Source: Blastococcus tunisiensis
GTDB taxonomy: Bacteria; Actinomycetota; Actinomycetes; Mycobacteriales; Geodermatophilaceae
Assembly: GCF_900112815.1 (NCBI RefSeq)
Contig: NZ_FOND01000005.1
Coordinates: 62,001 to 126,000, forward strand
Direction: 5' to 3'
Length of the DNA: 64,000 nucleotides
Of this stretch, positions 17,270 to 62,089 are shown in pieces. The position numbers and the translations under genes are program-made. The number at the start of each line of letters is the position of its first letter. Positions within the stretch are counted from its first letter, which is position 1. The notes beneath the pieces are model-generated. The model had not been told where the DNA came from. It searched no databases and saw nothing but the letters and a program-made list of their open reading frames with translations.

Positions 17270-18394
17270 TCAGGCCTCCTGTGCCGAGTCGGCGCCGTCG
17301 AGCGGGTCGCTGCGGCGCCGGACGAAGTCGATGATCGTGGGCACCGTCGTCTTCGCGGCCGTGCGGCCGACGACCAGCCCCATGTGCCCGGCGTCCAGCG
17401 GGAGCTCGTGCTTGTCCGGCGAGCCGACGAGGTCGATCAGCGGGGCCGTCGCGTCCGGCGGGACGATGTGGTCGCGGTTGGCCCGGACCGTCAGGAACGG
17501 CACCCGGATGTCGCCCAGGTGCACCGGGTCCCCGCCGACGGTGAGCCGGTCGGTGACCATGCCGTTGCGCCGGACTAGCATCTCCGCGGTCTCCCGGGCG
17601 GCCGCACCGGGGAAGGGCACGTGGTCGTCCGACCAGCCGGTCATCGCCTGGTAGGAGGCCACGTACTCGTCGTTCCAGAGCCGTTCCCACAGGGTGACGT
17701 AGCGGGTCACCTCCGCGGTCGGCGTCAGTGCCCGGAAGCCCTGGACGACGATCGACGGCGGCACGTTGCCGTCGTCGCCGATCACGGAGTCGACGTCCAT
17801 CCCGCCGACGGCGAAGACGTCGGCGAGCGGACCCATGTGCCGGAAGTCCACCGGGGTGGCCAGCACGGTCAGGCTGCGCAACGGCGCATCGGGATGGTGC
17901 GCGGCGTAGAGCAGCGTCAGGTTCCCGCCGAAGCAGTAGCCGAACAGGTTGACCTCGTCGGCGCCGGAGAGCTCGAGCACGCGGTCGATCCCGGCCGGGA
18001 TGTAGTCGTCGACGTAGTCCTCCAGCCGGTTCTCGGCGTCCCGCTCGTCGGGCTCCCCCCAGTCGAGCAGGTACACGTCGAACCCGGCCTTCAGCAGCTG
18101 CTCCACGAAGCTGTTGCCCGGTGTCAGGTCGAGGATGTAGCTGCGGCTCACCAGGCTGAACACGATCAGCAGGGGCGGTCCGTAGCGCACGCCCCCGTAG
18201 GTGTCGAGGTCGTTGCGGTAGTGCCAGAGCTGGGTCCGGCCCCGCTGCCAGACGACGTCCTTGGGGGTCTGGCCGACGCCGGGGCGGTCGACGCCGGCGA
18301 CGAGCTTGACGCCGTTACGGGCGCGCAGGGCGTTGCGCTCGACGTCGCGCCGGACGCGGTCGAGCACCGTCTGCGGGCTGGGCACCGTCGGCAT
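17270..18394 (-). CDS. phaC: Class III-like poly(3-hydroxyalkanoate) synthase PhaC
   Basis: A 374-aa alpha/beta-hydrolase-fold protein. The lipase-like box is GYCFGG with Cys as nucleophile, diagnostic of PHA synthases; ANRDHIVP holds the catalytic Asp and DAGHMGL the His. Its length matches class III PhaC (about 360 aa), which needs a partner subunit. The ATG at 18394 has a strong GGAGGA 5 nt upstream and lies inside the preceding coiled-coil gene, an 80-nt out-of-frame overlap. It probably polymerises 3-hydroxyacyl-CoA in granules. Confidence 0.85.
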   Translation of the reverse strand: MPTVPSPQTVLDRVRRDVERNALRARNGVKLVAGVDRPGVGQTPKDVVWQRGRTQLWHYRNDLDTYGGVRYGPPLLIVFSLVSRSYILDLTPGNSFVEQLLKAGFDVYLLDWGEPDERDAENRLEDYVDDYIPAGIDRVLELSGADEVNLFGYCFGGNLTLLYAAHHPDAPLRSLTVLATPVDFRHMGPLADVFAVGGMDVDSVIGDDGNVPPSIVVQGFRALTPTAEVTRYVTLWERLWNDEYVASYQAMTGWSDDHVPFPGAAARETAEMLVRRNGMVTDRLTVGGDPVHLGDIRVPFLTVRANRDHIVPPDATAPLIDLVGSPDKHELPLDAGHMGLVVGRTAAKTTVPTIIDFVRRRSDPLDGADSAQEA

Positions 18395-49339: not shown

Positions 49340-49355
49340 GCTACCGGCGGGTAAC
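49340..49355. promoter_or_regulatory. Palindromic operator upstream of meaA
   Basis: GCTACCGGCGGGTAAC matches the ccrA site GTTACCGGCGGGTAAC at 15 of 16 positions. It lies 5 nt before the -10 TAGACT, a good place for a repressor. Confidence 0.6.
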
Positions 49356-49360
49356 CGCCC

Positions 49361-49366
49361 TAGACT
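49361..49366 (+). promoter_or_regulatory. -10 element of meaA
   Basis: TAGACT ends 8 nt before the meaA ATG at 49375; likely leaderless. The operator-like palindrome occupies the -35 to -10 spacer. Confidence 0.5.
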
Positions 49367-49374
49367 CCGCCGGT

Positions 49375-51390
49375 ATGCCGTTCCCTTCAACGCCGAAGGA
49401 GCGCGACCGCCCCTGGGTCATGCGCACCTACGCCGGACACTCCTCGCCGGCCGAGTCCAACGCCCTGTACCGCCGCAATCTGGCGAAGGGGCAGACCGGC
49501 CTGTCGGTCGCCTTCGACCTGCCGACGCAGACCGGCTACGACCCGGACGACGAGCTCGCGGTCGGTGAGGTCGGCAAGGTCGGCGTGCCGGTCACCCACA
49601 TCGGCGACATGCGCGCCCTCTTCGACGGCATCCCGCTCGACGAGATGAACACGTCGATGACGATCAACGCCACGGCGATGTGGCTGCTCGCGCTCTACCA
49701 GGCGGTGGCCGAGGAGCACGGCCACGACGTCAGCAAGCTCGCCGGGACGACGCAGAACGACATCATCAAGGAGTACCTGTCGCGGGGGACGTACGTCTTC
49801 CCGCCGGCCCCGTCGATGCGGCTGATCACGGACATGGTCGCCTACACGGTGACGACGATGCCGAAGTGGAACCCGATCAACATCTGCAGCTACCACCTGC
49901 AGGAGGCCGGGGCGACACCGGAGCAGGAGATCGCCTACGCGATCGGCACCGCCATCGCCGTCCTCGACTCGGTGCGTGACTCGGGGCAGGTCCCGCAGGA
50001 GAAGTTCGGCGAGGTCGTCGCCCGGATCTCCTTCTTCGTCAACGCGGGCGTCCGCTTCGTCGAGGAGATGTGCAAGATGCGCGCCTTCACCCAGCTCTGG
50101 GACGAGCTGACGGAGGAACGCTACGGCGTGCAGGACCCCAAGCACCGCCGCTTCCGCTACGGCGTGCAGGTCAACTCGCTGGGGCTGACCGAGGCGCAGC
50201 CGGAGAACAACGTCCAGCGGATCGTGCTGGAGATGCTCGCCGTCACGCTGTCCCGCGACTCCCGCGCCCGCGCGGTGCAGTTGCCGGCCTGGAACGAGGC
50301 GCTCGGCCTGCCCCGGCCGTGGGACCAGCAGTGGTCGCTGCGGCTCCAGCAGGTGCTGGCCTACGAGACCGACCTGCTCGAGTACGAGGACCTGTTCACC
50401 GGCTCGGTCGTCGTCGAGAAGAAGGTCGCCGAGCTGGTCGAGGGCGCCAAGGCGGAGATGGCCCGCGTCGAGGAGCTGGGCGGCGCCGTCGCGGCGGTCG
50501 AGTCCGGCTACATGAAGAGCGCGATGGTCGGCTCGCTGGCCGAGCGCCGGCGCCGGATCGAGAGCGGCGAGGACGTCGTCGTCGGCGTGAACAGGTTCGA
50601 GACCACCGAGCCCAACCCGCTCACCGCCGACCTCGACACGGCCATCATGACGGTCGACCCGGCCGTGGAGGCCTCCGCCCAGGAGGCGGTGCAGAAGTGG
50701 CGCGCCGAGCGCGACCAGGCCGCCGCCGACGCGGCGCTCGACGCCCTGCGTGCGGCGGCTGCCTCCGAGGTGAACCTGATGGCCGCCACCCTCGACTGCG
50801 CCCGCGCGGGCGTGACGACGGGGGAGTGGGCCGGGGTGCTGCGCGAGGTGTTCGGCGAGTACCGGGCGCCGACCGGGGTCGCGGCCGCGACCGGTGGTGG
50901 CGAGGCCGACGACACCCTGCGCGAGATCCGGGAGCGGGTCCGTGCCACGGGCGAGGAGCTCGGCGGGCGGCTGCGGTTCCTGGTCGGCAAGCCGGGCCTG
51001 GACGGGCACTCCAACGGTGCCGAGCAGATCGCCGTCCGGGCCCGCGACGCCGGCTTCGAGGTCGTCTACCAGGGCATCCGGCTCACCCCGGCGCAGATCG
51101 TGTCCGCGGCGGTCGAGGAGGACGTGCACGTGGTCGGCCTGTCGGTGCTCTCCGGATCCCATCTCCAGGTCGTCCCCAGCGTGCTGCAGGGCCTCAAGGA
51201 CGCCGGGCTCGACGACGTCCCGGTGGTCGTCGGCGGGATCATCCCCGACAGCGACGCCCGGCGGCTGCGCGAGCAGGGCGTCGCTCGCGTCTTCACGCCC
51301 AAGGACTTCGGGCTCACCGAGATCATGGGCGCCGTCGTCGACGTCATCCGAGATGCGAACGGCCTGCAGAAGGTGCCGGCTCCGGCCTGA
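49375..51390 (+). CDS. meaA: Protein MeaA, ethylmalonyl-CoA mutase type
   Basis: A 671-aa adenosylcobalamin-dependent acyl-CoA mutase of the single-chain MeaA type. The N-terminal TIM barrel has FDLPTQTGYDPD, NTSMTINATAMWLL and AGTTQNDIIKEY. The C-terminal B12 domain (about residues 535-665) carries DGHSNGAEQIA (D-x-H-x-x-G ligand His) and GLSVLSGSH. It likely converts ethylmalonyl-CoA to methylsuccinyl-CoA, following Ccr. The ATG 49375 is just downstream of a -10 and operator-like palindrome. Confidence 0.92.
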   Translation: MPFPSTPKERDRPWVMRTYAGHSSPAESNALYRRNLAKGQTGLSVAFDLPTQTGYDPDDELAVGEVGKVGVPVTHIGDMRALFDGIPLDEMNTSMTINATAMWLLALYQAVAEEHGHDVSKLAGTTQNDIIKEYLSRGTYVFPPAPSMRLITDMVAYTVTTMPKWNPINICSYHLQEAGATPEQEIAYAIGTAIAVLDSVRDSGQVPQEKFGEVVARISFFVNAGVRFVEEMCKMRAFTQLWDELTEERYGVQDPKHRRFRYGVQVNSLGLTEAQPENNVQRIVLEMLAVTLSRDSRARAVQLPAWNEALGLPRPWDQQWSLRLQQVLAYETDLLEYEDLFTGSVVVEKKVAELVEGAKAEMARVEELGGAVAAVESGYMKSAMVGSLAERRRRIESGEDVVVGVNRFETTEPNPLTADLDTAIMTVDPAVEASAQEAVQKWRAERDQAAADAALDALRAAAASEVNLMAATLDCARAGVTTGEWAGVLREVFGEYRAPTGVAAATGGGEADDTLREIRERVRATGEELGGRLRFLVGKPGLDGHSNGAEQIAVRARDAGFEVVYQGIRLTPAQIVSAAVEEDVHVVGLSVLSGSHLQVVPSVLQGLKDAGLDDVPVVVGGIIPDSDARRLREQGVARVFTPKDFGLTEIMGAVVDVIRDANGLQKVPAPA

Positions 51391-51396
51391 GGCGGC

Positions 51397-51402
51397 TAGC
51401 GT
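51397..51402 (+). promoter_or_regulatory. -10 element of the enoyl-CoA hydratase gene
   Basis: TAGCGT sits 6 nt before the ATG at 51409, giving a possible leaderless transcript separate from meaA read-through. Confidence 0.45.
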
Positions 51403-51408
51403 CGGGGC

Positions 51409-52191
51409 ATGGCTGACGGTGCACCCAGGGTCGAACGCGACGGCATGGACGGCGAGGGCGTCGTCCGCATCACCATGGTGCGGGCGGCCCGCCGCAACGC
51501 GCTGTCCCGGGAGCACCTGACCCAGCTGCTGGACGCCGTCACGGAGGTCGGCGACAGCGACGCCACCGGCATCGTGCTGGCAGCCGAGGGTCCGGTGTTC
51601 AGCGCCGGGCACGACTTCGCCGACGTGGCCGGGAAGCCGGTGGCCGAGGTGCGCAGCCTGCTGCGGCTGTGCACCGAGCTGATGCAGACCATCCAGGACG
51701 TGCCGCAGGTCGTCGTGGCGCGGGTGCACGCACTGGCGACGGCCGCCGGGTGCCAGCTGGTCGCCTCCTGCGATCTCGCCGTCGCCGCGGAATCGGCCGG
51801 CTTCGCCGCCCCCGGCGGGAAGGGCGGCTGGTTCTGCCACACCCCGATGGTGGCCATCGCCCGGAACGTCGGGCGCAAGCGGGCCATGGAGCTGGCGCTG
51901 ACCGGGGACGTCATCGATGCCCGCACCGCGCTGGACTGGGGACTGGTCAACCGGGTGGTGCCCGACGCCGAACTGGACGCGGAGGTCGCCGACCTCATGT
52001 CCCGGGCCACCCGCGGTTCCCGGGCGAGCAAGGCCTGGGGGAAGCAGACGATGTACGCCCAGCTGGATCGTCCCGAGCGGGACGCGTACGCCACGGCGGT
52101 CGAGGTGATGGCCGCGGCGAGCCAGCTCGACGGCGCGCGCGAAGGGATGAGCGCGTTCCTGGAGAAGCGCCGGCCCGTCTGGACCGATTGA
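51409..52191 (+). CDS. Enoyl-CoA hydratase/isomerase family protein
   Basis: A 260-aa crotonase-fold protein. The oxyanion-hole segment is FSAGHDFADVAG and the second loop is ATAAGCQLVASCDLAVAAESAGF. At the usual catalytic Glu positions it has GKGGWFCHTP, like echA variants annotated as ECHDC3-type hydratases, so its reaction is less certain than its fold. It follows meaA by 18 bp and may supply crotonyl-CoA chemistry to the pathway. Confidence 0.88.
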   Translation: MADGAPRVERDGMDGEGVVRITMVRAARRNALSREHLTQLLDAVTEVGDSDATGIVLAAEGPVFSAGHDFADVAGKPVAEVRSLLRLCTELMQTIQDVPQVVVARVHALATAAGCQLVASCDLAVAAESAGFAAPGGKGGWFCHTPMVAIARNVGRKRAMELALTGDVIDARTALDWGLVNRVVPDAELDAEVADLMSRATRGSRASKAWGKQTMYAQLDRPERDAYATAVEVMAAASQLDGAREGMSAFLEKRRPVWTD

Positions 52192-52247
52192 GGACCCCCG
52201 TTCCCCCCACCGCTCACAGGCTCGCGGCGGGACCCTGAACGGGGGCC
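52191..52247 (+). repeat. 3'-end stem-loop element, copy 6
   Basis: It begins within the hydratase stop codon region (AGGACCCCCGTTC) and closes with GAACGGGGGCC. The inner stem pairs CCACCGC with GCGGCGG. Remaining bases to 52428 hold no ORF I can support. Confidence 0.7.
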
Positions 52248-52428
52248 TGGGTGACTCCGCGCACATGGGGGATGACTGCTGCCCCTCGCGGCATTGACCC
52301 TGCCGTGCAGAACCTGTGGGGCCTCACGCAGCGGCGTGCCCTGGACCTCGGACGGCGGACGACCACCGGCTGTTGACGCCGGCCGCGCCCGTCCTCCTCC
52401 GTCCGTTCCCCGAAAGGCCCTCCGTCCC

Positions 52429-53781
52429 GTGCTCTCCCGTCTCCGCCGCGTGCCGTTCGCGGCACAGGTCCTCTTCGCCCTCGTCGTCGGCGTCGCCCTC
52501 GGCTTCGTCGCCCGCGAGATGGGCACCGTCGCCGACGGCTCGCCCAACTGGCTCACCAGCACGCTGCAGACGATCGGCGGCACGTTCGTCACGCTGCTGA
52601 AGGCGCTGGTGCCGCCGCTGATCGTCACCGCCGTGATCGTCAGCATCGCCAACCTCAAGCAGGTCTCGAACGCCGCCCGCCTCGCGGGTCAGACCCTCCT
52701 GTGGTTCGCGATCACCGCGCTGATCGCCGTCGCGATCGGCATCGGCCTCGGCCTGCTCACCGAGCCCGGCCGCAACAGCTCGGTCGACGCCGCCGCGCAG
52801 ACCGAGCCCGGCACCACGGGCTCGTGGTTCGGCTTCCTCGAGGGGCTGGTGCCGCAGAACATCCTCGGCCTGCAGGGCTCGGCCGAGGGCGCGCTCTCCT
52901 TCGACGTGCTGCAGCTGATCGTCATCGCGGTGGCCATCGGCATCGCCGCCCTGAAGGTCGGCGATGCGGCGGAGCCGTTCCTCGGGTTCGTCCGCTCGGC
53001 GCTGGCGATCGTCCAGAAGGTGCTGTGGTGGGTCATCCTGCTCGCGCCGCTGGGCACCGTCGGCCTGATCGGCAACGCGGTCGCCAGCTACGGCTGGGAG
53101 TCGCTGGGTTCGCTCGGGGTCTTCGCCGGTGCGGTGTACGCCGGGCTCGCCCTCGTGCTGTTCGTCGTCTACCCGGTGCTCCTGCGCCTGCACGGGCTCT
53201 CGCCGCTGCGGTACTTCGCGGGCGCCTGGCCGGCGATCCAGCTGGCCTTCGTGTCCCGGTCCTCCATCGGCACGCTCCCGGTCACCGAGCGGGTCACCGA
53301 GCAGAACCTGGGCGTCCCGCGGTCCTACGCCTCCTTCGCGGTCCCGCTCGGTGCGACGACCAAGATGGACGGCTGCGCGGCGATCTACCCGGCGCTGGCG
53401 GCGATCTTCGTGGCGCAGTTCTTCGGCGTCGACCTGGCGCTCACCGACTACCTGCTGATCGTCCTGGTCTCGGTCATCGGCTCGGCGGCCACCGCCGGGA
53501 CGACGGGTGCGGTGGTCATGCTGACCCTGACGCTGTCGACGCTGGGCCTCCCGCTGGCCGGCGTCGGCCTGCTGCTGGCCGTCGACCCCATCCTCGACAT
53601 GGGCCGCACCGCGGTGAACGTGGCCGGCCAGGCCCTCGTGCCGACCATCGTGGCCAAGCGGGAGGGGATCCTGGACGTCGACCGGTACCGGTCCACGTCC
53701 ACCATCGACCCGCTGGCCCCGGTCGAGGAGCGCGACGGCGTCGACACCGACCTGCGGCGCCCCGAGCCCGCGACGGTCTGA
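52429..53781 (+). CDS. Dicarboxylate/amino acid:cation symporter (DAACS)
   Basis: A 450-aa membrane carrier of the glutamate/C4-dicarboxylate family with eight helices and two hairpins. The substrate/Na+ motifs are [11 protein letters not shown] (serine-rich HP1), [10 protein letters not shown] and [13 protein letters not shown]. The start is GTG 52429 ([13 protein letters not shown]) with AAAGG 11 nt upstream. It may import succinate, malate or aspartate. It stands alone, convergent with the lipoprotein gene. Confidence 0.93.
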
Positions 53782-53796
53782 GCGGACCGAACGACG

Positions 53797-53830
53797 ACGG
53801 CCCGGTCCTCCCTGCGGAGGTCCGGGCCGT
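53797..53830. terminator. Bidirectional hairpin between symporter and lipoprotein genes
   Basis: ACGGCCCGGTCCTCC pairs with GGAGGTCCGGGCCGT, a 15-bp stem with one mismatch and a 4-nt loop, between two convergent stops. Confidence 0.75.
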
Positions 53831-53833
53831 TCG

Positions 53834-54718
53834 TCACTCGAGGAGGTCGGCGCAGCCGGTCTCGTCGGGCAGCAGCGGCCGGAAGGACACCGACCAGCGC
53901 ATGCCGTCGCTGGTGACCCACGGGGTGGCCGCGTTGCCCTCGCGGGCGGCCGCGAGCAGGGCCTGCGCCTCGGCGCCCGTGGCGGTCACGCAGCTGACGT
54001 CGCCGAGGCCGCCGACCGGCTCGCCCGGCAGCTCGGGGCCGGGCCAGGGCAGCTCCGGCTGCGTCAGGCCGTCCTCCGGATCCACCCAGGGAGACACGAC
54101 GGCGGCGACCGCCTCGGGCTCGTAGGGCTCCGACGCCCTGCCGGGGTCGGTCACCGAGGCCAGGAACTCGCTGAGCTCCGCGCGGGCCGCGGCCTGCTCC
54201 GCGGTGATCCCGGCGCCGGCCGCATCGGCGGCTCCGGGCAGGCCGGCCGACATCCCGAGGGCGTAGATCTCGCGCACGTGGGTGTCGGTGGCGGTGACGA
54301 GCGTGAACCGGGTCGAGGGGGCGTCGGCGACCGGCGGACTGCCCAGGTCGCCGTCCTCGCCGACGCCGGCGGCCAGCGCCCGGTCGACGAGGTCCTGGAC
54401 CTGCGCCGGACCGATCTCGGCCACCTGGACGTTGGGCAGGGCGGGGCCCGGGTAGATCGCCGGCACCGGGCCCTCGGTGATCACCCGGCCGTCGGCGTAC
54501 ACGCTGACCAGCGGCAGCCGCGCGGCCAGCATCGACGGCGTCACGTACCCGCCGGTGTGCTCGACCCGGAGCACCAGGCCCTCGGTCGCCGCGACGTCGG
54601 ACGACGGGGCCGCGGTGGACGACGGTGCCGCCGAGGGGCTCCCGACGCCGGGGCTCTCGGCGCACGCCGACAGGGCCAGGACCAGGGCCAGGGCCGCGGC
54701 GGGCCTCGTCGCTCGCAT
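53834..54718 (-). CDS. Putative lipoprotein
   Basis: A 294-aa secreted lipoprotein. The signal peptide [19 protein letters not shown] ends in a lipobox (LSAC, Cys19), followed by a Ser/Ala/Pro linker ([16 protein letters not shown]) and a soluble domain with [26 protein letters not shown] and two cysteines that may bond. No known enzymatic motif. I chose ATG 54718, which has GGAG 9 nt upstream; ATG 54727 is too close to it. Confidence 0.85.
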
Positions 54719-54771
54719 GATCGTCATCTCCTGACGACGACGGGGCGGCGGCGAGGGTTCCCGCGCCCGGT

Positions 54772-54777
54772 AGCGTC
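54772..54777 (+). promoter_or_regulatory. -10 element of nucS
   Basis: TAGCGT ends 7 nt before the nucS GTG at 54785; leaderless start probable. Confidence 0.5.
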
Positions 54778-54784
54778 GGCGCCC

Positions 54785-55456
54785 GTGCGTCTGGTCATCG
54801 CCCGCTGCTCCGTCGATTACATCGGGCGGCTCACCGCCCACCTGCCCATGGCGACCCGCCTGCTGCTGGTGAAGGCCGACGGCTCGGTCTCGATCCACGC
54901 CGACGACCGCGCCTACAAGCCGCTGAACTGGATGACGCCGCCGTGCCGGCTCGAGGACGAGCTGGCCGACGGGTCGGGCACGTGGACGGTGACGAACAAG
55001 GCCGGCGAGCAGCTGATCATCACGATCGAGGCCGTGGAGCACGACCACTCCCACGATCTCGGCGTCGACCCGGGCCTGCAGAAGGACGGCGTCGAGGCCG
55101 AGCTGCAGCGCCTGCTCGCCCTCCACGTGGAGACCTTCGGGGCCGGCTGGTCGCTGGTGCGCCGCGAGTACCCGACGGCGATCGGACCGGTCGACCTGCT
55201 GTGCCGCGATGCCTCGGGCACCACTGTCGCCGTGGAGATCAAGCGGCGCGGCGAGATCGACGGTGTCGAGCAGCTGACCCGCTACCTGGAGCTGCTCAAC
55301 CGCGACCCGCTCCTCGCGCCGGTCAAGGGCGTGTTCGCCGCGCAGGAGATCAAGCCGCAGGCGCGGGTGCTCGCCGCCGATCGCGGCATCGACTGCCTGA
55401 CCGTCGACTACGCCGTCCTCAAGGGCACCGACGACCCCACCCAGCGGCTGTTCTGA
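54785..55456 (+). CDS. nucS: Endonuclease NucS (EndoMS), mismatch-specific
   Basis: A 223-aa mismatch endonuclease that replaces MutSL in actinobacteria. The N-terminal DNA-binding domain begins [20 protein letters not shown]; the RecB-like C-terminal nuclease domain has GPVDLLCRD (metal Asp) and [17 protein letters not shown] (catalytic E-x-K and Gln). The C-terminus PTQRLF is consistent with the sliding-clamp-binding tail known for the family. It lies next to the MeaA/Ccr block as Rv1321 lies near the epimerase gene in M. tuberculosis. Confidence 0.95.
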
Positions 55457-55516
55457 GTGCAGACCCCGTCCGCCCGCGAGCCGGGGGGGACCAGCCGCTC
55501 GGCCGGGCCGGGCGAA

Positions 55517-55532
55517 GTTACCGGGCGGTAGC
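55517..55532. promoter_or_regulatory. Palindromic operator upstream of the 3-hydroxyacyl-CoA dehydrogenase gene
   Basis: GTTACCGGGCGGTAGC shares the GTTACC/GGTA-C arms and 4-nt centre with the sites before meaA and ccrA. It is 70 bp before the dehydrogenase start. Confidence 0.5.
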
Positions 55533-55602
55533 CCGGCGCGGCGGCGGCGGCCGGGGAGTGAGAGACTGCCCGCGATCACCGGTGGTGGGAGGAGATGAGC
55601 TC

Positions 55603-57384
55603 GTGGCCAGGGAACTGAACGAGGTCGGCGTCGTGGGGCTGGGCACCATGGGTGCCGGCATCGCCGAGGTGCTCGCACGGGCGGGCCTGTCGGTCACCGC
55701 CGTCGAGATCAGCGAGGACGCGGTCGCCCGTGGGCGCGGGCACGTCGAGCAGTCCACCGACCGCGCCGTGGCCCGCGGCAAGCTCGACCCCGCCGACCGG
55801 GACAGCATCTTCGAGCGCATCCGGTTCAGCGACTCGCTGGAGGACCTCGCGCAGGCCGAGCTGGTCATCGAGGCCATCCCCGAGCGCATGGAGCTCAAGG
55901 CCGACGTCTTCGCGAAGCTGGACAAGATCTGCCCGCCGGACACCATCCTGGCGACCAACACCTCCAGCCTCTCGGTCACCGAGCTGTCGGTCGTGACCGG
56001 CCGGCCGAGCAAGGTCATCGGGATGCACTTCTTCAACCCGGCGCCGGTCATGAAGCTGGTCGAGGTCGTGCAGACGGTCGTCACCGAGCCGTCGGTGGTG
56101 GAGGACGTCGAGGCGCTGGCCGAGCGGCTGGGCAAGGTCGACGTCACGATCGGCGACCGCGCCGGCTTCATCGCCAACGCGCTGCTGTTCGGCTACCTCA
56201 ACCACGCCGTCTCCATGTTCGAGAACCGCTACGCCAGCCGCGAGGACATCGACGCCGCCATGCGGCTGGGCTGCGGTCTGCCGATGGGCCCGCTGTCGCT
56301 GATGGACCTCATCGGCATCGACACCGCCTACGAGATCCTCGACACGATGTACAAGCAGTCGCGCAACCGGCTGCACGCCCCCAGCCCGATCATCAAGCAG
56401 ATGATGACCGCGGGGCTGCTGGGCCGGAAGGTCGGGCGCGGCTTCTACACCTACGCCGAGCCCGGCTCCGCCCAGGTCGTCGACGACGCGCGGACCCCGG
56501 CCGCCGGCGGCGCCGCGGAGGGCGCCCGCGACGTCCGGACGGTCGGCGTCGTGGGGTCCGGCACGATGGCCACCGGCATCATCGAGGTCGTCGCCAAGGG
56601 CGGCTACGACGTGCGCTTCGTCGCCCGCTCGCCCGAGAAGGTGGAGGGTGTCACGACGGCGCTCACCAAGTCGCTCGACAAGCAGGTGGTCCGCGGCCGG
56701 CTCGAGGAGGCGGCGAAGGACGAGATCCTGGCCCGCGTCAGCGGCACGACGTCGCTCGACGAGCTCGCCGACCGCGACCTGATCATCGAGGCCGTCGTGG
56801 AGTCGCTCCCGGTCAAGGAGGCGCTGTTCGCCAACCTCGGGGAGATCGCCAAGCCCGGCGCCGTGCTGGCCACCACCACCTCCAGCCTGCCGGTCATCGA
56901 GTGCGCCAAGGCCAGCGGCCGCCCCGCCGACGTCGTCGGCATGCACTTCTTCAACCCCGCACAGGTCATGAAGCTGGTCGAGGTGGTCAGCACCATCTCC
57001 ACCGCGCCCGACGTGGCCGCCACGGCACACGCGGTGAGCGCCCAGCTGGGGAAGCACGCGGTGTCCTGCACCGACCGGGCCGGCTTCATCGTCAACGCGC
57101 TGCTCTTCCCGTACCTGAACGACGCGGTGAAGATGCTCGAGGCGCACTACGCGACCGCGGACGACATCGACGCCGCGATGAAGGTCGGCTGCGGGTACCC
57201 GATGGGCCCGTTCGAGCTTCTGGACGTCGTGGGCCTCGACGTCTCGCTGGCGATCGAGAAGGAGCTCTACACCGAGTTCCGCGAGCCCGGCTTCGCCCCG
57301 GCACCGCTGCTCGAGCACCTGGTCACCGCCGGCTACCTGGGCCGCAAGTCCGGTCGCGGGTTCCGGGACTACGCCGGCCGCTGA
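55603..57384 (+). CDS. Tandem 3-hydroxyacyl-CoA dehydrogenase (3-hydroxybutyryl-CoA type)
   Basis: A 593-aa protein made of two complete 3-hydroxyacyl-CoA dehydrogenase units. Unit 1 (1-290): GLGTMGAG, EAIPE, NTSSLSV, GMHFFNP with the catalytic His, RAGFIANALL. Unit 2 (about 308-593): GSGTMATG, EAVVE, TTSSLPV, GMHFFNP, RAGFIVNALL. Both keep His and Asn, so both could be active. It interconverts acetoacetyl- and 3-hydroxybutyryl-CoA. Start GTG 55603 with GGAGGAG 8 nt upstream. Confidence 0.93.
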   Translation: MARELNEVGVVGLGTMGAGIAEVLARAGLSVTAVEISEDAVARGRGHVEQSTDRAVARGKLDPADRDSIFERIRFSDSLEDLAQAELVIEAIPERMELKADVFAKLDKICPPDTILATNTSSLSVTELSVVTGRPSKVIGMHFFNPAPVMKLVEVVQTVVTEPSVVEDVEALAERLGKVDVTIGDRAGFIANALLFGYLNHAVSMFENRYASREDIDAAMRLGCGLPMGPLSLMDLIGIDTAYEILDTMYKQSRNRLHAPSPIIKQMMTAGLLGRKVGRGFYTYAEPGSAQVVDDARTPAAGGAAEGARDVRTVGVVGSGTMATGIIEVVAKGGYDVRFVARSPEKVEGVTTALTKSLDKQVVRGRLEEAAKDEILARVSGTTSLDELADRDLIIEAVVESLPVKEALFANLGEIAKPGAVLATTTSSLPVIECAKASGRPADVVGMHFFNPAQVMKLVEVVSTISTAPDVAATAHAVSAQLGKHAVSCTDRAGFIVNALLFPYLNDAVKMLEAHYATADDIDAAMKVGCGYPMGPFELLDVVGLDVSLAIEKELYTEFREPGFAPAPLLEHLVTAGYLGRKSGRGFRDYAGR

Positions 57385-57387
57385 CCG

Positions 57388-57693
57388 GTGCCCCGTCGTC
57401 GGCCCCGGGCCGGGTCGAGGCCGTCGGGCCGTGAGCCGGCTCGCCGCGTCGATGCCGTCGAGGAGGCCGCGGACGGTGACTGGGTGGTCCGGCCGGTCAC
57501 CGGCGCCACCACGGGCAAGAGCTACCGGTGCCCCGGCTGCGACCAGGAGATCCGGGTCGGGACGCCGCACGTGGTGACGTGGGCGGCGTACCCGCGGGAC
57601 TCCGACCTCGACCCGTGGGACACCGAGTCGGCCGCCGACCTGCGCCGGCACTGGCACACCGCCTGCTGGCGGGCCCGCGACCGCCGTCGCTGA
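57388..57693 (+). CDS. Small zinc-ribbon-like protein
   Basis: A 101-aa basic protein. A Cys pair (YRCPGC) and a His/Cys pair (HWHTAC) 43 residues on look like a zinc site. Similar actinobacterial proteins are often labelled ATP/GTP-binding, without clear basis. The first 30 residues are Arg/Pro-rich and may not be real; the start GTG 57388 is 3 nt after the dehydrogenase stop. Function unknown. Confidence 0.7.
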   Translation: MPRRRPRAGSRPSGREPARRVDAVEEAADGDWVVRPVTGATTGKSYRCPGCDQEIRVGTPHVVTWAAYPRDSDLDPWDTESAADLRRHWHTACWRARDRRR

Positions 57694-57696
57694 CCG

Positions 57697-57747
57697 AGGA
57701 CCTCCTGCCGCCGCTCGCTCGCGGCGGGCCGTGCAGGAGGCCGTTCC
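57697..57747 (+). repeat. 3'-end stem-loop element, copy 7
   Basis: GAGGACCTCCTGC and GCAGGAGGCCGTTCC pair around an inner CCGCCGC/GCGGCGG stem. It lies between the convergent zinc-ribbon and sortase genes. Confidence 0.7.
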
Positions 57748-57753
57748 GTCCCG

Positions 57754-59115
57754 TCACCTGGCGAAGACGACGACGTTGTCGGTGTAGCTGCCGCGCGCGC
57801 GGTCGAAGGCGCCGCCGCAGGTGATCAGCCGCAGCTCGGCGCCCGGCGTCGGTGCGTAGACGTCGGTGGTGGGGAACGCGGCCTTGTCCGCGTGGACCAC
57901 TCGCGTGACGGTGAACCGGACGGTGCTGCCGTCGGCCCGTGCCACCTCGACCTCCGCCCCCGGCTCGACGTCCGCGAGCCCGGCGAAGGCGCCCGGTGCG
58001 CCGGCCCAGTCGACGTGTGCGGTGATCACCCCGGGCCCGGGCGCACCCGGTAGCGGCCCGTCGGCGTACCAGCCTGCGAGGGCGGCGTCCGCGGGCGGGA
58101 GCAGGGCACCGGAGCCGTCCAGGCCGGTCCCGACCAGTGCGACGTCGATGCCGAGCGAGGGCACGGTGAGTCGGGTCGGCGCCGCCGGATCCGCGGGCGC
58201 GTCGGCCGGCGGGACCGGCCGCCCGGCCGGTGCGGCGGTGGCCGGTGCGGGCACGCCCGCGCCCAGCGCCACGAGCGCGATGGTCGTGAGCAGCACCCGT
58301 CCCCGCCGGCCGGCCAGGCCCAGCGCGGCCCCGGCCAGCGGCAGCAGCACCGAGACCGTGGGCAGGGGGCCGGAGCCGGCCTCGACCGGACCGGTGGGCA
58401 CGACGGCCGGCCCGGCGGCGTCCACGACCGGCCGGACGACCAGGCCGCCGGCGGGATCGTCGAGCACCAGCAGCGTGACGACCGATCCGGCGGCGAACTC
58501 GACGGGCACCGCCGTCCGTGCGTCGCCGACCACGAGCGATGCGGGACCGGACGGCACCACCCGCGCCTGGCCACCGGCCCCGAACGGCAGCGCCGTGGCC
58601 AGCGACGGCCCGCCGCGGACGGCCACGTCCAGCGTCCCCGCCTCCGCGGCCGCGGCGACGACCCGCACCCGCGCCGACCCGGCCGGGGGAGCGGAGAGGT
58701 CGTCGGTCAGCGTGTGCAGGGCGAGGTCGGCGAACCGGCCGTCCAGGGTCACGGTCCGGGCGGCACCCGCCGGCAGCTCGACGCGCGTGGAGAGGACCGG
58801 CGCGGTGCCGGTGTCGGCACCGGCCGGCCGCAAGCTCACGGCGTAGCTGCCCGGAGCGAGATCGGCGAACCGGCTCAGCTCGCCGTACCCCAGCCCCGCG
58901 GCGAGGTCGGGGCCCGGATCGGTCACCGTCCCCCGGTCACCGGGCGGGAGCGGAGCGACGGCGACGTCGACGGCGGGCGTGTCGGGGGAGAGGTGGGCGA
59001 CCCGGAGCCTGCCCGTCTCGTCGGCGATCGCGGTCGGTACCCCGAGAGAGCAGAGGACCGCCACCAGCAGGACGACGAGCAGCCCCCGCCGGCGCCGGGA
59101 GTGGTGCTCCGTCAG
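57754..59115 (-). CDS. DUF4397-class F sortase protein (CTG start likely)
   Basis: A 453-aa exported protein. The N-terminus has a basic stretch (HHSRRRRG) and hydrophobic signal (LLVVLLVAVLCSLGV). DUF4397-type sequence follows (RLRVAHLSPDTPAVDVAV; RVRVVAAAAEAGTLDV), a transmembrane stretch near 270-295, then a class F sortase domain with HVDWAG (His), ITCGGAF (nucleophile Cys) and RARGSYTDN (Arg). Only a CTG at 59115, overlapping the upstream stop as CTGA, gives a complete signal peptide. Confidence 0.85.
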   Translation of the reverse strand: MTEHHSRRRRGLLVVLLVAVLCSLGVPTAIADETGRLRVAHLSPDTPAVDVAVAPLPPGDRGTVTDPGPDLAAGLGYGELSRFADLAPGSYAVSLRPAGADTGTAPVLSTRVELPAGAARTVTLDGRFADLALHTLTDDLSAPPAGSARVRVVAAAAEAGTLDVAVRGGPSLATALPFGAGGQARVVPSGPASLVVGDARTAVPVEFAAGSVVTLLVLDDPAGGLVVRPVVDAAGPAVVPTGPVEAGSGPLPTVSVLLPLAGAALGLAGRRGRVLLTTIALVALGAGVPAPATAAPAGRPVPPADAPADPAAPTRLTVPSLGIDVALVGTGLDGSGALLPPADAALAGWYADGPLPGAPGPGVITAHVDWAGAPGAFAGLADVEPGAEVEVARADGSTVRFTVTRVVHADKAAFPTTDVYAPTPGAELRLITCGGAFDRARGSYTDNVVVFAR

Positions 59116-60479
59116 GAACGTCCCTGCCCGACCGGCTGGTCGATGGCCTGGGTCGGCGGGCCCTGGACCGGTGCCGGGCCGGCTCCGGGCCGCGGGGGCA
59201 TCGGAAGCTGGCGGGTCGCCGGTTCGGGCCGGGCGGCCGGGCGGGCGCCCGTGTCGTCGTCGTCGCGGGACGCCGCCGGTTCCGCCGGTGCCGCCGCCGG
59301 TGCCGTGGTGGTGGAGTGCGGGGTGGGGGACGGACGGCGCTCGGTCTCCCGGGCGGGGTCGGTCTGCGGTGCGGTGCTCCGGCTCGCCGTCGCCGTGGTC
59401 GACGACGCGGCGGCGGGAGCGTCCGCCGGGGCGTGCCGGGGACCGGACTGCTGCGGCTGGTTCGGCTGCGGGGACGCGGACTGCGCCCTCTGCGGCGCGG
59501 CCTGCTGCGGGGCCGTGGACTGCTGCGGCGTCGACTGCTGGGGCGCGGACTGCTGGGGCGCGGACTGCTGGGGCGCGGACTGCTGCGGCGCGGACTGCTG
59601 CGGCGCGGACTGCTGGGCGGCGGGCCGCTGCGGCGTCGACTGCTGGGCGGCGGGCCGCTGCGGCGTCGACTGCTGGGGCCGGTCGCCCAGGTCCGGCAGG
59701 CTGCTGAGCAGCTGGCGGGCCTGGAGCAGCCGGCCGGTGAGCTCGTCGCGCACGTCGCGGATCGCCTCGGCCCGGGCCTCGGCCTCGGCGACGAGCTGGG
59801 CGGCGTGCTGCTCCGCGGCGGCGATGCGCTGGCGCGCGGCCTGGGTGGAGACGCGCTCGCGCTCGTCCTCCGCTGCGGCGGCCTCGGCGCGGCGGGCGCG
59901 CTGGGCGATGTCGAAGTCCTCCTCGACCTTGGCGCGGCGGGCCTGCGACTCGGCGTCGAGACGGGCCACCCGCTCCTGTGCCTTGGCGACCAGCTCGTCG
60001 GCGCGCTGCTGGGCCTTCTGCGCGATCTGCTCGGCGTTCTGCCGGGCCTCGGCCAGCATCCGCTCGACCTCGGCCTGCCCGGCGGCGTGCCGCTCGAGCA
60101 GGGCGCGCTCCTCGGCGGCGGTCTGCTCGCGGACGGCCTGGGCGTCCAGCTCGGCCGCGTGCCGGATCTCCCCGGCCTCCTCCTCGGCGAGCTGCAGCAT
60201 GTGCTGGATGCGCTCGCTGATGTTCTCGAACGTCGGCGCCGACGCCGTCGCTGCCTTCCGGCGCAGCGACTCGATCTCGGCGTGCAGGGCCGAGAGCTGG
60301 CTCGCGAGGTCGGCCGACCGGCCCGCGGCGGCGTCCCGGTCGGCGAAGGCGACCCGCAGGTCCGCCTCGAGCCGCTCGATCGCCTCGGCCACCTGGTTGC
60401 GGTCGTAACCCCGCAGCTGTACGTCGAACGAGTGCTGGGCCTCGTGGTTCGGCAGCTGTTCGCGGCGGGGATCGTTCAT
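59112..60479 (-). CDS. DivIVA/FilP-like coiled-coil protein with QQSAP repeats
   Basis: A 455-aa cytoplasmic protein. The N-terminus FDVQLRGYDRNQVAEAIERL is the DivIVA-like membrane/assembly motif seen in polarity proteins of the Scy/FilP type. A long Ala/Glu/Arg/Gln coiled coil follows (about 40-235), then tandem APQQS and TPQRPAAQQS repeats (about 245-300), and a Pro/Ser/Thr-rich tail. It probably forms filaments or scaffolds at poles or septa. Start ATG 60479 with GAGG upstream. Its stop overlaps the sortase start. Confidence 0.8.
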   Translation of the reverse strand: MNDPRREQLPNHEAQHSFDVQLRGYDRNQVAEAIERLEADLRVAFADRDAAAGRSADLASQLSALHAEIESLRRKAATASAPTFENISERIQHMLQLAEEEAGEIRHAAELDAQAVREQTAAEERALLERHAAGQAEVERMLAEARQNAEQIAQKAQQRADELVAKAQERVARLDAESQARRAKVEEDFDIAQRARRAEAAAAEDERERVSTQAARQRIAAAEQHAAQLVAEAEARAEAIRDVRDELTGRLLQARQLLSSLPDLGDRPQQSTPQRPAAQQSTPQRPAAQQSAPQQSAPQQSAPQQSAPQQSAPQQSTPQQSTAPQQAAPQRAQSASPQPNQPQQSGPRHAPADAPAAASSTTATASRSTAPQTDPARETERRPSPTPHSTTTAPAAAPAEPAASRDDDDTGARPAARPEPATRQLPMPPRPGAGPAPVQGPPTQAIDQPVGQGRS

Positions 60480-60616
60480 GGGGTCCATCCTCGCAGAAGG
60501 TCCGAGGCTCGTCAGCGTGTCGGACGCACATCCGGTACCAGTGGGACAACTGAGCCGCAACCGGGAGCCCGGCTGGATCAGCAGCCCGGGCCCCCGGCGC
60601 CGGGCCCCCTGCGCCA

Positions 60617-60674
60617 GGCCCCCTCGCAGGGGCCCGGCGCGAGCCTGCGAGTGCTGGGGGGCGAGGGGGTCCTT
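60617..60674 (-). repeat. 3'-end stem-loop element, copy 8
   Basis: On the minus strand AAGGACCCCCTCGC starts 2 nt after the ccrA stop, and GCGAGGGGGCC closes the outer stem. The inner part (CCCCAGCACTCGC...GGGCCCCT) matches other copies. A second GC hairpin abuts it at 60583-60615. Confidence 0.7.
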
Positions 60675-60676
60675 GT

Positions 60677-62008
60677 TCAGACCCCGCGGAAGCGGTTGAT
60701 CGCCTCGAGGTGCTGCGCGCGCTTCTCGGCGTTCCGCACTCCGAGCCCCTCCTCCGGGGCCAGGGTGAGCACGCCGACCTTCCCCTGGTGGGCGTTGCGG
60801 TGGACGTCGAGGGCGGCCTGGCCGACCTCGGCCATCGGGTAGACCTTCGACAGGGTGGGGTGGATGAGGCCCTTGTCGATGAGCCGGTTGGCCTCCCACG
60901 CCTCCTTGTAGTTGGCGAAGTGCGAGCTGACGATCCGCTTCAGGTTCATCCAGAGGTAGCGGTTGTCGTAGGAGTGCATGTAGCCGGTGGTCGAGGCGCA
61001 GGTGACGATCGTGCCGCCCTTCTTGGCGACGTAGACGCTCGCCCCGAAGGTCTCGCGGCCGGGGTGCTCGAAGACGATGTCGACGTCCTCGCCGCCGGTC
61101 AGCTCCCGGATCTTCTTGCCCAGGCGCTGCCATTCCTTCGGGTCCTGGGTGTTCTCGTCCTTCCAGAACGCGTACTGCTCGGCGGAGCGGTCGATGACCA
61201 GCTCGGCCCCCATCTTGCGGACGATCTCGGCCTTCTCCGGGCTGCTGACGACGCACACCGGGATGGCGCCGCCGTTGAGCGCCATCTGGGTGGCGTAGGA
61301 GCCGAGCCCGCCCGAGGCGCCCCAGATCAAGACCGTGTCGCCCTGCTTCATGTTCGCGCCGTGGTGGCTGACCAGCTGCCGGTAGGCGGTGGAGTTCACC
61401 AGTCCCGGCGCCGCGGCCTCCTCCCAGGAGAGGTGGCCGGGCTTGGGCATCAGCTGGTTGCTCTTGACCAGGGCCAGCTCGGCCAGGCCGCCGAAGTTGG
61501 TCTCGAAGCCCCAGATCCGCTGCTGCGGGTCCATCATCGTGTCGTCGTGGCCGGCCGGGTCCTCCAGCTCCACCGAGAGGCAGTGCGCGACGACCTCGTC
61601 GCCGGCCTTCCACTTGTTCACGCCCGGGCCCACCCGGAGCACGACGCCGGCGAGGTCGGAGCCGACCACGTGGTAGGGCAGGTCGTGCTTCTTGGTCAGC
61701 TCGGACACCCGGCCGTAGCGCTCCAGGAACCCGAAGGTGGAGACCGGCTCGAAGATCGACGTCCAGACGGTGTTGTAGTTCACCGACGACGCCATGACGG
61801 CGACGATCGCCTCGCCGGGGCCGAGCTCGGGGGTGGCCACCTCCTCGACGTGCAGCGACTTGCGCGGGTCCTTCTCCCTGGTTGCGAGGCCCTCGAACAT
61901 GTCCTGCTCGTCCTTGCGGACGACGACGGCGCGGTAGGACTCGGGCACGGCCAGCCCTCCCACGGCGTCCAGCTCGTCGCTGAGGATGGCGTCCCTGATC
62001 TCGTTCAC
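60677..62008 (-). CDS. ccrA: Crotonyl-CoA carboxylase/reductase
   Basis: A 443-aa MDR-superfamily enzyme that reductively carboxylates crotonyl-CoA to (2S)-ethylmalonyl-CoA with NADPH and CO2. It has VTSIF-like VWTSIFEPVSTFGFLERYG, the NADPH motif WGASGGLGSYATQMA, VFEHPGRETFGASVY and the conserved STTGYMHSYDNRYLWMNLK, here given as STTGYMHSYDNRY. CO2-binding residues Asn and His around VNYNTVW and HPGRETF are kept. It is preceded by a palindromic operator. It feeds MeaA. Confidence 0.95.
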   Translation of the reverse strand: MNEIRDAILSDELDAVGGLAVPESYRAVVVRKDEQDMFEGLATREKDPRKSLHVEEVATPELGPGEAIVAVMASSVNYNTVWTSIFEPVSTFGFLERYGRVSELTKKHDLPYHVVGSDLAGVVLRVGPGVNKWKAGDEVVAHCLSVELEDPAGHDDTMMDPQQRIWGFETNFGGLAELALVKSNQLMPKPGHLSWEEAAAPGLVNSTAYRQLVSHHGANMKQGDTVLIWGASGGLGSYATQMALNGGAIPVCVVSSPEKAEIVRKMGAELVIDRSAEQYAFWKDENTQDPKEWQRLGKKIRELTGGEDVDIVFEHPGRETFGASVYVAKKGGTIVTCASTTGYMHSYDNRYLWMNLKRIVSSHFANYKEAWEANRLIDKGLIHPTLSKVYPMAEVGQAALDVHRNAHQGKVGVLTLAPEEGLGVRNAEKRAQHLEAINRFRGV

Positions 62009-62056
62009 GCGTTCTCCCGGGTCTTCGTCGGCTCGGAGCAGTGCGGGTGGGGCGAT

Positions 62057-62072
62057 GTTACCGGCGGGTAAC
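62057..62072. promoter_or_regulatory. Palindromic operator upstream of ccrA
   Basis: GTTACCGGCGGGTAAC: perfect GTTACC/GGTAAC arms with GGCG centre, 49 nt upstream of the ccrA start. It is the best of three matching sites in the window. Confidence 0.65.
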
Positions 62073-62089
62073 CGTGCGGTCGAGCCCGG

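What the first reader, a model, noticed from the sequence alone, without database searches (positions are those of the whole stretch)
49340..62072. Three matching palindromes mark an ethylmalonyl-CoA-type regulon
GTTACCGGCGGGTAAC lies before ccrA (62057), a 15/16 match before meaA (49340) and a weaker one before the tandem 3-hydroxyacyl-CoA dehydrogenase (55517). The genes are not one operon, yet belong to one pathway, and I saw no further full copies elsewhere in the window. Size and symmetry suit a TetR-type repressor. No regulator gene is near, so it acts from elsewhere.
Basis: partly seen in the sequence, partly recalled or inferred. Interest (0 to 1): 0.7.

Follow-up and report, generated by a model that had tools for sequence, protein, structure and literature searches.

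The report
FasR-type operators of fat-burning genes
Three matching DNA palindromes in this soil-actinobacterium window belong to a conserved switch found on the promoters of many of its fatty-acid-burning genes, and the evidence points to a relative of a regulator known in mycobacteria for controlling the opposite process, fat synthesis.

Summary
In detail: GTTACC-N4-GGTAAC palindromes lie before ccrA (62057, exact), meaA (49340) and a tandem 3-hydroxyacyl-CoA dehydrogenase (55517), the last two with 11 of 12 half-site letters. All three recur in relatives. Exact copies occur in 86 of 96 family genomes, against 1 of 96 for a reversed control. The regulon is wider than the ethylmalonyl-CoA pathway: 13 of 19 relaxed sites in the own genome precede fatty-acid or acyl-CoA genes, including beta-oxidation, ETF and acetyl-CoA synthetase. 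The likely reader is the TetR-family orthologue of mycobacterial FasR, encoded on another contig. Its own promoter carries the motif in 52 of 80 named loci (half-degenerate in this family), the published FasR operator at mycobacterial fas has nearly the same half-sites, and the DNA-reading helix is identical. The family has FasR (95 of 96) but no detected type-I fatty acid synthase (0 of 96). At ccrA and fadA the palindrome overlies a -10 box, so repression relieved by long-chain acyl-CoA is inferred; no binding was tested. FasR would then work like E. coli FadR. My searches of the held library showed no such link, but key papers were not held.

The parts
62057..62072 (.). Palindromic operator GTTACCGGCGGGTAAC before ccrA
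   Evidence: exact match; 48 nt before the start codon; exact sites 34-84 nt before ccrA at 21 loci of relatives
62055..62060 (-). -10-like TAACAT of ccrA overlapping the operator
   Evidence: sequence; TAAC-N-T at 21 of 21 exact ccrA sites of relatives
62078..62083 (-). -35-like TCGACC of ccrA, 17-nt spacer to TAACAT
   Evidence: read by eye from the sequence; inference
60677..62008 (-). ccrA, crotonyl-CoA carboxylase/reductase
   Evidence: NCBIfam TIGR01751 604.8 bits, cut-off 378.55
49340..49355 (.). Operator GCTACCGGCGGGTAAC before meaA
   Evidence: 1 mismatch; conserved at -19 in 15 of 19 relatives
49361..49366 (+). -10-like TAGACT of meaA just downstream of the operator
   Evidence: read by eye from the sequence; inference
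49375..51390 (+). meaA-like acyl-CoA mutase (B12-dependent)
51409..52191 (+). enoyl-CoA hydratase family gene 18 nt behind meaA, probably co-transcribed
   Evidence: best NCBIfam enoyl-CoA hydratase model 283.9 bits, below its cut-off of 313; co-transcription is inference
55517..55532 (.). Operator GTTACCGGGCGGTAGC before the tandem HADH
   Evidence: 1 mismatch; conserved at -65 to -70 in 13 of 19 relatives
55603..57384 (+). tandem 3-hydroxyacyl-CoA dehydrogenase
   Evidence: two 3HCDH_N and two 3HCDH stretches

Best explanation
The palindromes are operators of a fatty-acid degradation and acyl-CoA assimilation regulon, read by the TetR-family protein FasR (own genome contig C28:517866-518492, minus strand). 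Free FasR dimers bind GTTACC-N4-GGTAAC over the -10/-35 region of ccrA, fadA, etfBA and others, and keep RNA polymerase off. When long-chain acyl-CoAs build up they bind FasR, it leaves the DNA, and beta-oxidation, ETF, acetyl-CoA synthetase and the crotonyl-CoA/ethylmalonyl-CoA enzymes are made. FasR probably controls its own gene too. Shown here: motif, conservation, target genes, overlap with -10-like boxes, FasR conservation, motif at fasR, and related half-sites in the published fas operator. Inferred: that FasR binds here, that it represses, and the ligand logic (release by acyl-CoA is published for M. tuberculosis FasR).
For: Exact motif in 15 of 16 genus genomes (control 0), 86 of 96 family genomes (control 1), 41 of 148 class genomes (control 5). 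Targets; etfD upstream regions keep at least 9 of 12 letters in 21 of the 23 loci where the start was located (30 loci in all). Regulator: G105, a 2.7-Mb relative with a ccrA site, has 6 TetR_N matches, 5 over Pfam's cut-off. Comparing all its TetRs with all 48 of the own genome and all 13 of G145, only two groups are close (57% or more identity) in all three. One is FasR: full-length match to PDB 6o6p E=1.5e-59, IADRAGVSKPVLYQHF identical, NCBIfam FasR the best model. The palindrome lies upstream of fasR in 52 of 80 named loci, 0.0014 expected per region. The published FasR co-crystal oligo (PMC7382501) recurs in 6 of 6 presumed Mycobacterium genomes; its flanks complete AGTAAC in 6 of 6 and GTTACC in 5 of 6 (GTTACT in one); the next gene is FAS-I in the 3 of 6 that were tested. 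FasR in 95 of 96 family genomes; FAS-I domain PF08354 in 0 of 96, C. glutamicum positive. TAACNT overlaps the operator at 21 of 21 ccrA and 20 of 20 fadA exact sites.
Against: No binding or expression data for this organism. Published FasR is an activator of fas-acpS, so the sign here is inferred from site position only. In Geodermatophilaceae the fasR site is half-degenerate (usually NNNACC-N4-GGTAAC) and fails the strict test (1 of 15 such loci). The own FasR scores below NCBIfam's curated cut-off (258 of 330 bits). The fas operator is not a simple 16-bp palindrome; its outer half-sites lie further apart. meaA and HADH sites do not run into a TAACNT box. 5 of 19 own relaxed sites precede no evident acyl-CoA gene and a sixth is doubtful; the looser one-mismatch 14-mer scan gave 16 sites against 5 for the control, 6 of them without evident link. 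Of 29 class loci 13 were not matched to an acyl-CoA reference gene. 10 of 96 family genomes lack an exact site though FasR is nearly universal, and family f18 (6-10 Mb genomes) has one in 1 of 12, so the regulon is not shown there. The narrowing by G105 assumes a TetR reader. FdmR, another mycobacterial repressor of fatty-acid catabolism, could not be compared.
Confidence: 0.72

Rival explanations
1. The regulon is real but is read by another acyl-CoA-responsive TetR protein (for example an FdmR-type or AccR/PccD-type repressor), and fasR is merely one of its targets.
For: FdmR (Rv0238) is described as a long-chain acyl-CoA-responsive repressor of fatty-acid degradation genes in mycobacteria (passage in PMC12403877). 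AccR's site GTTAA-N6-TTAAC (review PMC10933834) has the same 16-bp geometry. The own genome has 48 TetR_N matches. A further G105 TetR (L195) has a 50% identical own homologue (L091), though none as close in G145.
Against: The published FasR operator at fas carries nearly the same half-sites. Apart from FasR only one TetR (own L076, beside an ispE-like gene) is close in G105, G145 and the own genome, and its upstream regions have no better than 8 of 12 letters. AccR's half-site differs (GTTAA, not GTTAC).
Confidence: 0.17
2. The element is a conserved promoter sequence (extended -10 TAACNT and its spacer) rather than an operator.
For: TAACNT overlaps all 41 exact ccrA and fadA sites, with a -35-like box 17 nt upstream in most by eye.
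Against: Sigma-factor promoters are not palindromic; the upstream half GTTACC lies in the spacer; meaA and HADH sites, the own, L153 and L154 fadE5 sites and the L169 and L171 thiolase sites keep the palindrome without a TAACNT box there; tandem palindromes 23-25 bp apart occur at fadE5-like genes and etfD.
Confidence: 0.04
3. A pathway-specific ethylmalonyl-CoA regulon.
For: ccrA, meaA and HADH all carry the site.
Against: Sites also precede fadA, other acyl-CoA dehydrogenase genes, a fadD-like gene, etfB, an etfD-like gene and acetate-CoA ligase, and etfB, etfD, fadE5-like and thiolase genes outside the family.
Confidence: 0.03

Closest known systems
FasR (Rv3208) of Mycobacterium tuberculosis
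   Same: TetR family; helix region identical over IADRAGVSKPVLYQHF; operator half-sites GTTACC/AGTAAC at fas of presumed Mycobacterium genomes; ligand class long-chain acyl-CoA (published, passage)
   Different: Described as activator of fas-acpS; this family has no detected FAS-I (0 of 96) and ccrA and fadA sites overlie core promoters of degradation genes
FadR of Escherichia coli (recalled)
   Same: Would work alike: represses beta-oxidation, released by long-chain acyl-CoA, linked to synthesis genes in some lineages
   Different: FadR is a GntR-family protein with an unrelated operator; not homologous
FdmR (Rv0238) of Mycobacterium
   Same: Acyl-CoA-responsive repressor of fatty-acid degradation genes (passage in PMC12403877)
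   Different: Its sequence and operator could not be read here; no evidence that it reads this site
AccR / PccD / BkaR family of actinomycetes
   Same: TetR repressors of acyl-CoA genes; AccR site GTTAA-N6-TTAAC has the same 16-bp geometry
   Different: Half-site GTTAA, not GTTAC; listed AccR targets are accD1A1-hmgL-fadE4, echA8, echA9 and fadE2, not ccrA or etfBA

Membership tests
FasR (TetR family) | sequence orthology to FasR | tested here: met
   full-length match to 6o6p E=1.5e-59; NCBIfam FasR is the best model, 258 bits but below the cut-off of 330
FasR (TetR family) | conserved DNA-reading helix | tested here: met
   IADRAGVSKPVLYQHF identical in the alignment
FasR (TetR family) | regulates a FAS-I (fas-acpS) operon | tested here: not met
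   PF08354 in 0 of 96 family genomes; C. glutamicum control positive. So it is filed as an orthologue of FasR by sequence, not as a regulator of FAS-I
FasR (TetR family) | operator half-sites shared with mycobacterial fas | tested here: met
   AGTAAC in 6 of 6 and GTTACC in 5 of 6 operator loci, FAS-I as next gene in 3 of 3 tested; best 14-mer identity between one fas operator and 30 fasR promoters 11-13 in 22 of 30, against 7 of 320 for shuffled promoters
FasR (TetR family) | binding lost with acyl-CoA of C16 or longer | not testable with these tools
   published for M. tuberculosis FasR (PMC7382501, passage)
TetR repressor regulon | palindrome overlapping core promoters | tested here: met
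   TAACNT overlap at 41 of 41 exact ccrA and fadA sites; not at the one HADH and the one meaA exact site
TetR repressor regulon | operator in front of the regulator's own gene | tested here: met
   52 of 80 named fasR loci; half-degenerate in Geodermatophilaceae (1 of 15 by the strict pattern), at least 9 of 12 letters at -27/-28 in 22 of 30
AccR | GTTAA-N6-TTAAC operator | tested here: not met
   consensus here is GTTAC-N6-GTAAC (review passage)
FdmR | FdmR operator and orthologue | not tested
   paper not held; its sequence was not at hand

The most novel reading that the evidence does not exclude
FasR is the actinobacterial counterpart of E. coli FadR: an acyl-CoA-released TetR regulator whose old role is to repress beta-oxidation, ETF and acyl-CoA assimilation by sitting on their -10 boxes, and which in FAS-I-bearing mycobacteria activates fatty-acid synthesis while probably still controlling etfBA and etfD there.
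Probability: 0.5. Interest if true: 0.75.

Novelty: new variant of a known kind. Interest (0 to 1): 0.62.

Why it matters
In the papers I saw, FasR is the activator of the mycobacterial type-I fatty acid synthase and nothing else. If the same protein represses fat degradation in other actinomycetes, it is a single acyl-CoA switch between making and burning fat. It would explain why FasR persists where FAS-I was not found, predict etfBA and etfD as further FasR targets in mycobacteria, and give an engineering handle on ccrA, which supplies ethylmalonyl-CoA for polyketides (recalled).

Tried and rejected
A conserved TetR beside an ispE-like gene (own L076; no motif upstream). Looking for a TetR gene with a perfect autoregulatory site in the own genome by simple scoring: none of 48 loci stood out; the fasR site was missed there because half of it is degenerate, and was found only by comparing relatives. 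A PadR-like gene beside etfD (L045, and 3 of 30 etfD loci) was considered as the regulator and not pursued: 27 of 30 etfD loci show no such peptide, yet 18 of 30 keep at least 10 of 12 motif letters.

Led nowhere: literature searches for the motif as text (0 papers) and for a FasR-beta-oxidation link. These cover only the held open-licence library; the AccR, FdmR and 2013 FasR papers were not held.

Limits of counts: relatives were chosen for an exact ccrA site. The 48 exact-site loci are all 26 non-own genus sites plus 22 of the further family sites (one per genome); the other 3 of 48 are a contig end and two unclear loci. Class loci are 29, one per genome, of 41 genomes with a match (own included). 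fasR promoters are 30 of 95 FasR-bearing genomes. Of 589 relatives the best 80 were kept; half of them are Streptomyces, so the 52 of 80 are not independent. In one search only part of the TetR loci of G002 and G203 were fetched, all of those of G105 and G145. PF08354 is one domain of FAS-I, used as its marker. The labels FadE5, EtfD, MeaA, fadA and ispE are recalled; family matches are. My notebook gives 7 TetR matches for G105; one search shows 6.
Full report
Observation. The window holds 4 matches to GTTACC-N4-GGTAAC at up to 2 mismatches against 0.38 expected; none of 100 shuffles reached 4. The exact copy is at 62057; the copies at 49340 and 55517 each miss one of 12 half-site letters. 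The window is G000:C21:62001-126000 of a 5.04-Mb assembly. The nearest named FasR is that of Blastococcus haudaquaticus (94% identity), and the 15 closest loci are all labelled Geodermatophilaceae genera or family.

More than chance. At up to 1 mismatch the own genome has 8 sites and the reversed control 0. Five of the 8 precede ccrA, fadA, meaA, HADH and etfB; the others precede an aldehyde dehydrogenase, a glnA-like gene and a Dabb-domain/glycosyltransferase-like pair (glnA and glycosyltransferase labels recalled). Exact sites occur in 15 of 16 genus genomes (control 0), 86 of 96 family genomes (control 1) and 41 of 148 class genomes (control 5). Of 48 exact sites in relatives with fetched flanks, 45 lie before ccrA (21), fadA (20), HADH, etfD, an aldehyde dehydrogenase or meaA (one each). 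In 19 relatives fetched around an exact ccrA site, the meaA site sits exactly 19 nt before the start codon in 15 of 19 and the HADH site 65-70 nt before the start in 13 of 19. Half-site columns are 80-100% identical among the rows that keep a site; HADH flanks are diverged, meaA flanks near the site are not. Four relatives (L337, L342, L344, L345) lack both sites and have a diverged HADH (about 74% identity); two more (L347, L348) lack only the HADH site.

The regulon. A relaxed pattern YTACYNNNNRGTAR gives 19 sites in the own genome against 7 for the control. Thirteen of 19 precede fatty-acid or acyl-CoA genes: acyl-CoA dehydrogenases (C9; C28; a FadE5-like one on C15 with two tandem sites), meaA, HADH, ccrA, etfB, acetate-CoA ligase, two thiolases, a fatty-acid-CoA ligase and an EtfD-like Fe-S protein. 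Several of these score below NCBIfam's equivalog cut-offs (the dehydrogenases, etfB, the fatty-acid ligase); the thiolases, ccrA and acetate-CoA ligase are above one. EtfD-like has no NCBIfam match, only Pfam Fe-S domains. One site precedes an alpha/beta hydrolase. Five have no evident link: C8, C18, inside an AmiS/UreI gene on C19, before a periplasmic binding protein on C26, and at an ABC-transporter gene on C28. The 14-mer scan at one mismatch gave 16 sites against 5 for the control. Among 29 class loci with an exact site, 16 match a reference gene of this metabolism: fadE5-like (L153, L154, L160, L161), ccrA (L163), etfB (L164, L167, L168, L170, L172, L175, L176), etfD (L174, L179) and a thiolase (L169, L171). 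Thirteen do not; one of these, L158, has a weak dehydrogenase match. Etf-D upstream regions in the family keep at least 9 of 12 letters in 21 of the 23 loci where the start was located, of 30 loci.

The regulator. The own genome has 48 TetR_N matches and none shows a clear autoregulatory site by simple scoring. G105, a 2.7-Mb relative with a ccrA site, has 6 TetR_N matches, 5 over the cut-off. When these were compared with all 48 of the own genome and all 13 of G145, two groups were close in all three. One lies beside an ispE-like gene in the own genome and has no motif upstream. The other is FasR: full-length match to PDB 6o6p, E=1.5e-59, with the helix region IADRAGVSKPVLYQHF identical, and NCBIfam's FasR model as best hit, though below its curated cut-off. 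FasR is in 95 of 96 family genomes.

Three lines tie FasR to the motif. First, fasR promoters: TAC[CT]-N4-[AG]GTA lies upstream in 52 of 80 named fasR loci, against 0.0014 expected per region from the same loci. This includes 38 of 40 Streptomyces and 5 of 5 Saccharopolyspora, but only 1 of 15 Geodermatophilaceae. In the latter the site is half-degenerate yet recurs at -27/-28 (22 of 30 promoters with at least 9 of 12 letters). Second, the published FasR co-crystal oligonucleotide (Methods passage of PMC7382501; section 10 read) recurs with up to 3 mismatches in 6 of 6 g12 genomes, taken as Mycobacterium, and in 0 of 2 other genomes of that family. Its flanks complete AGTAAC in 6 of 6 and GTTACC in 5 of 6, GTTACT in one. 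In the 3 loci tested the next gene is FAS-I (FAS_AT_central). Third, one fas operator and the Geodermatophilaceae fasR promoters share 14-mers at 11-13 identities in 22 of 30 cases, against 7 of 320 shuffled promoters.

How it probably works. At ccrA and fadA the gene-proximal half-site runs into TAAC-N-T, a -10 box, in 21 of 21 and 20 of 20 exact sites. The TA comes with the motif, so the independent feature is the T. By eye, a TTGGCC/TCGACC-like -35 lies 17 nt upstream in most. At meaA the palindrome lies just upstream of TAGACT. Such placement predicts repression by occlusion. M. tuberculosis FasR leaves DNA when acyl-CoA of C16 or longer binds (introduction passage of PMC7382501). So fatty acids would open beta-oxidation, ETF and the acetyl-CoA/crotonyl-CoA assimilation genes. 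In Mycobacterium FasR is a published activator of fas. In the presumed Mycobacterium genomes the exact palindrome also precedes etfB (2 genomes) and etfD (1 genome, with a second palindrome 25 bp on); 4 of 6 g12 genomes have any exact site. A mixed role there is possible.

A FasR without its known target. FAS-I, marked by PF08354, is found in 0 of 96 family genomes while C. glutamicum is positive. FasR is nevertheless kept in 95 of 96. The family has lost or never had the known target, and the degradation regulon is a natural reason to keep the protein (inference).

Literature. Papers seen as passages: PMC7382501 (also section 10), PMC5541348, PMC10933834, PMC11596240, PMC12481512, PMC10501769, PMC12403877, PMC12845086 and PMC8593149. 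Searches gave, in their listings and the passages I opened, no FasR link to beta-oxidation; one search found no paper with this motif as text. Most listed papers were not opened. The AccR, FdmR and 2013 FasR papers were not held, so the claim of novelty is limited.

Verdict. The binding step and its sign remain to be tested.

Noticed in passing
L215-L244, fasR upstream regions: Besides the site at -27/-28, many fasR promoters in the family keep a second half-site (about TCGACGGTAAY) just before the start of the divergent gene (seen by eye).
   Followed up: no
L337, L342, L344, L345: Four relatives lack both the meaA and the HADH site and carry a diverged HADH (about 74% identity) but keep the ccrA site, as if the two sites were lost together.
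   Followed up: partly
L026, L029, L037 and others: The fadA palindrome often lies between fadA and a divergent gene resembling a sugar-binding protein (label recalled), about 150 nt from its start, so both might be controlled.
   Followed up: no
L359:1124-1162, L160, L161, L174: Tandem palindromes 23-25 bp apart at fadE5-like genes and at etfD recall the neighbouring FasR dimers on one DNA fragment reported for the FasR-DNA crystal.
   Followed up: partly
L045, L122, L126, L129: A PadR-like regulator gene lies near etfD in four genomes; in L045 the palindrome is between the two, 76 nt from the PadR-like frame.
   Followed up: partly
window 54278-55456: An ORF directly upstream of the HADH site looks like the mismatch-repair nuclease NucS; label recalled, not tested.
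   Followed up: no
window 17683-17698: A fourth, two-mismatch match to the palindrome; not looked into.
   Followed up: no
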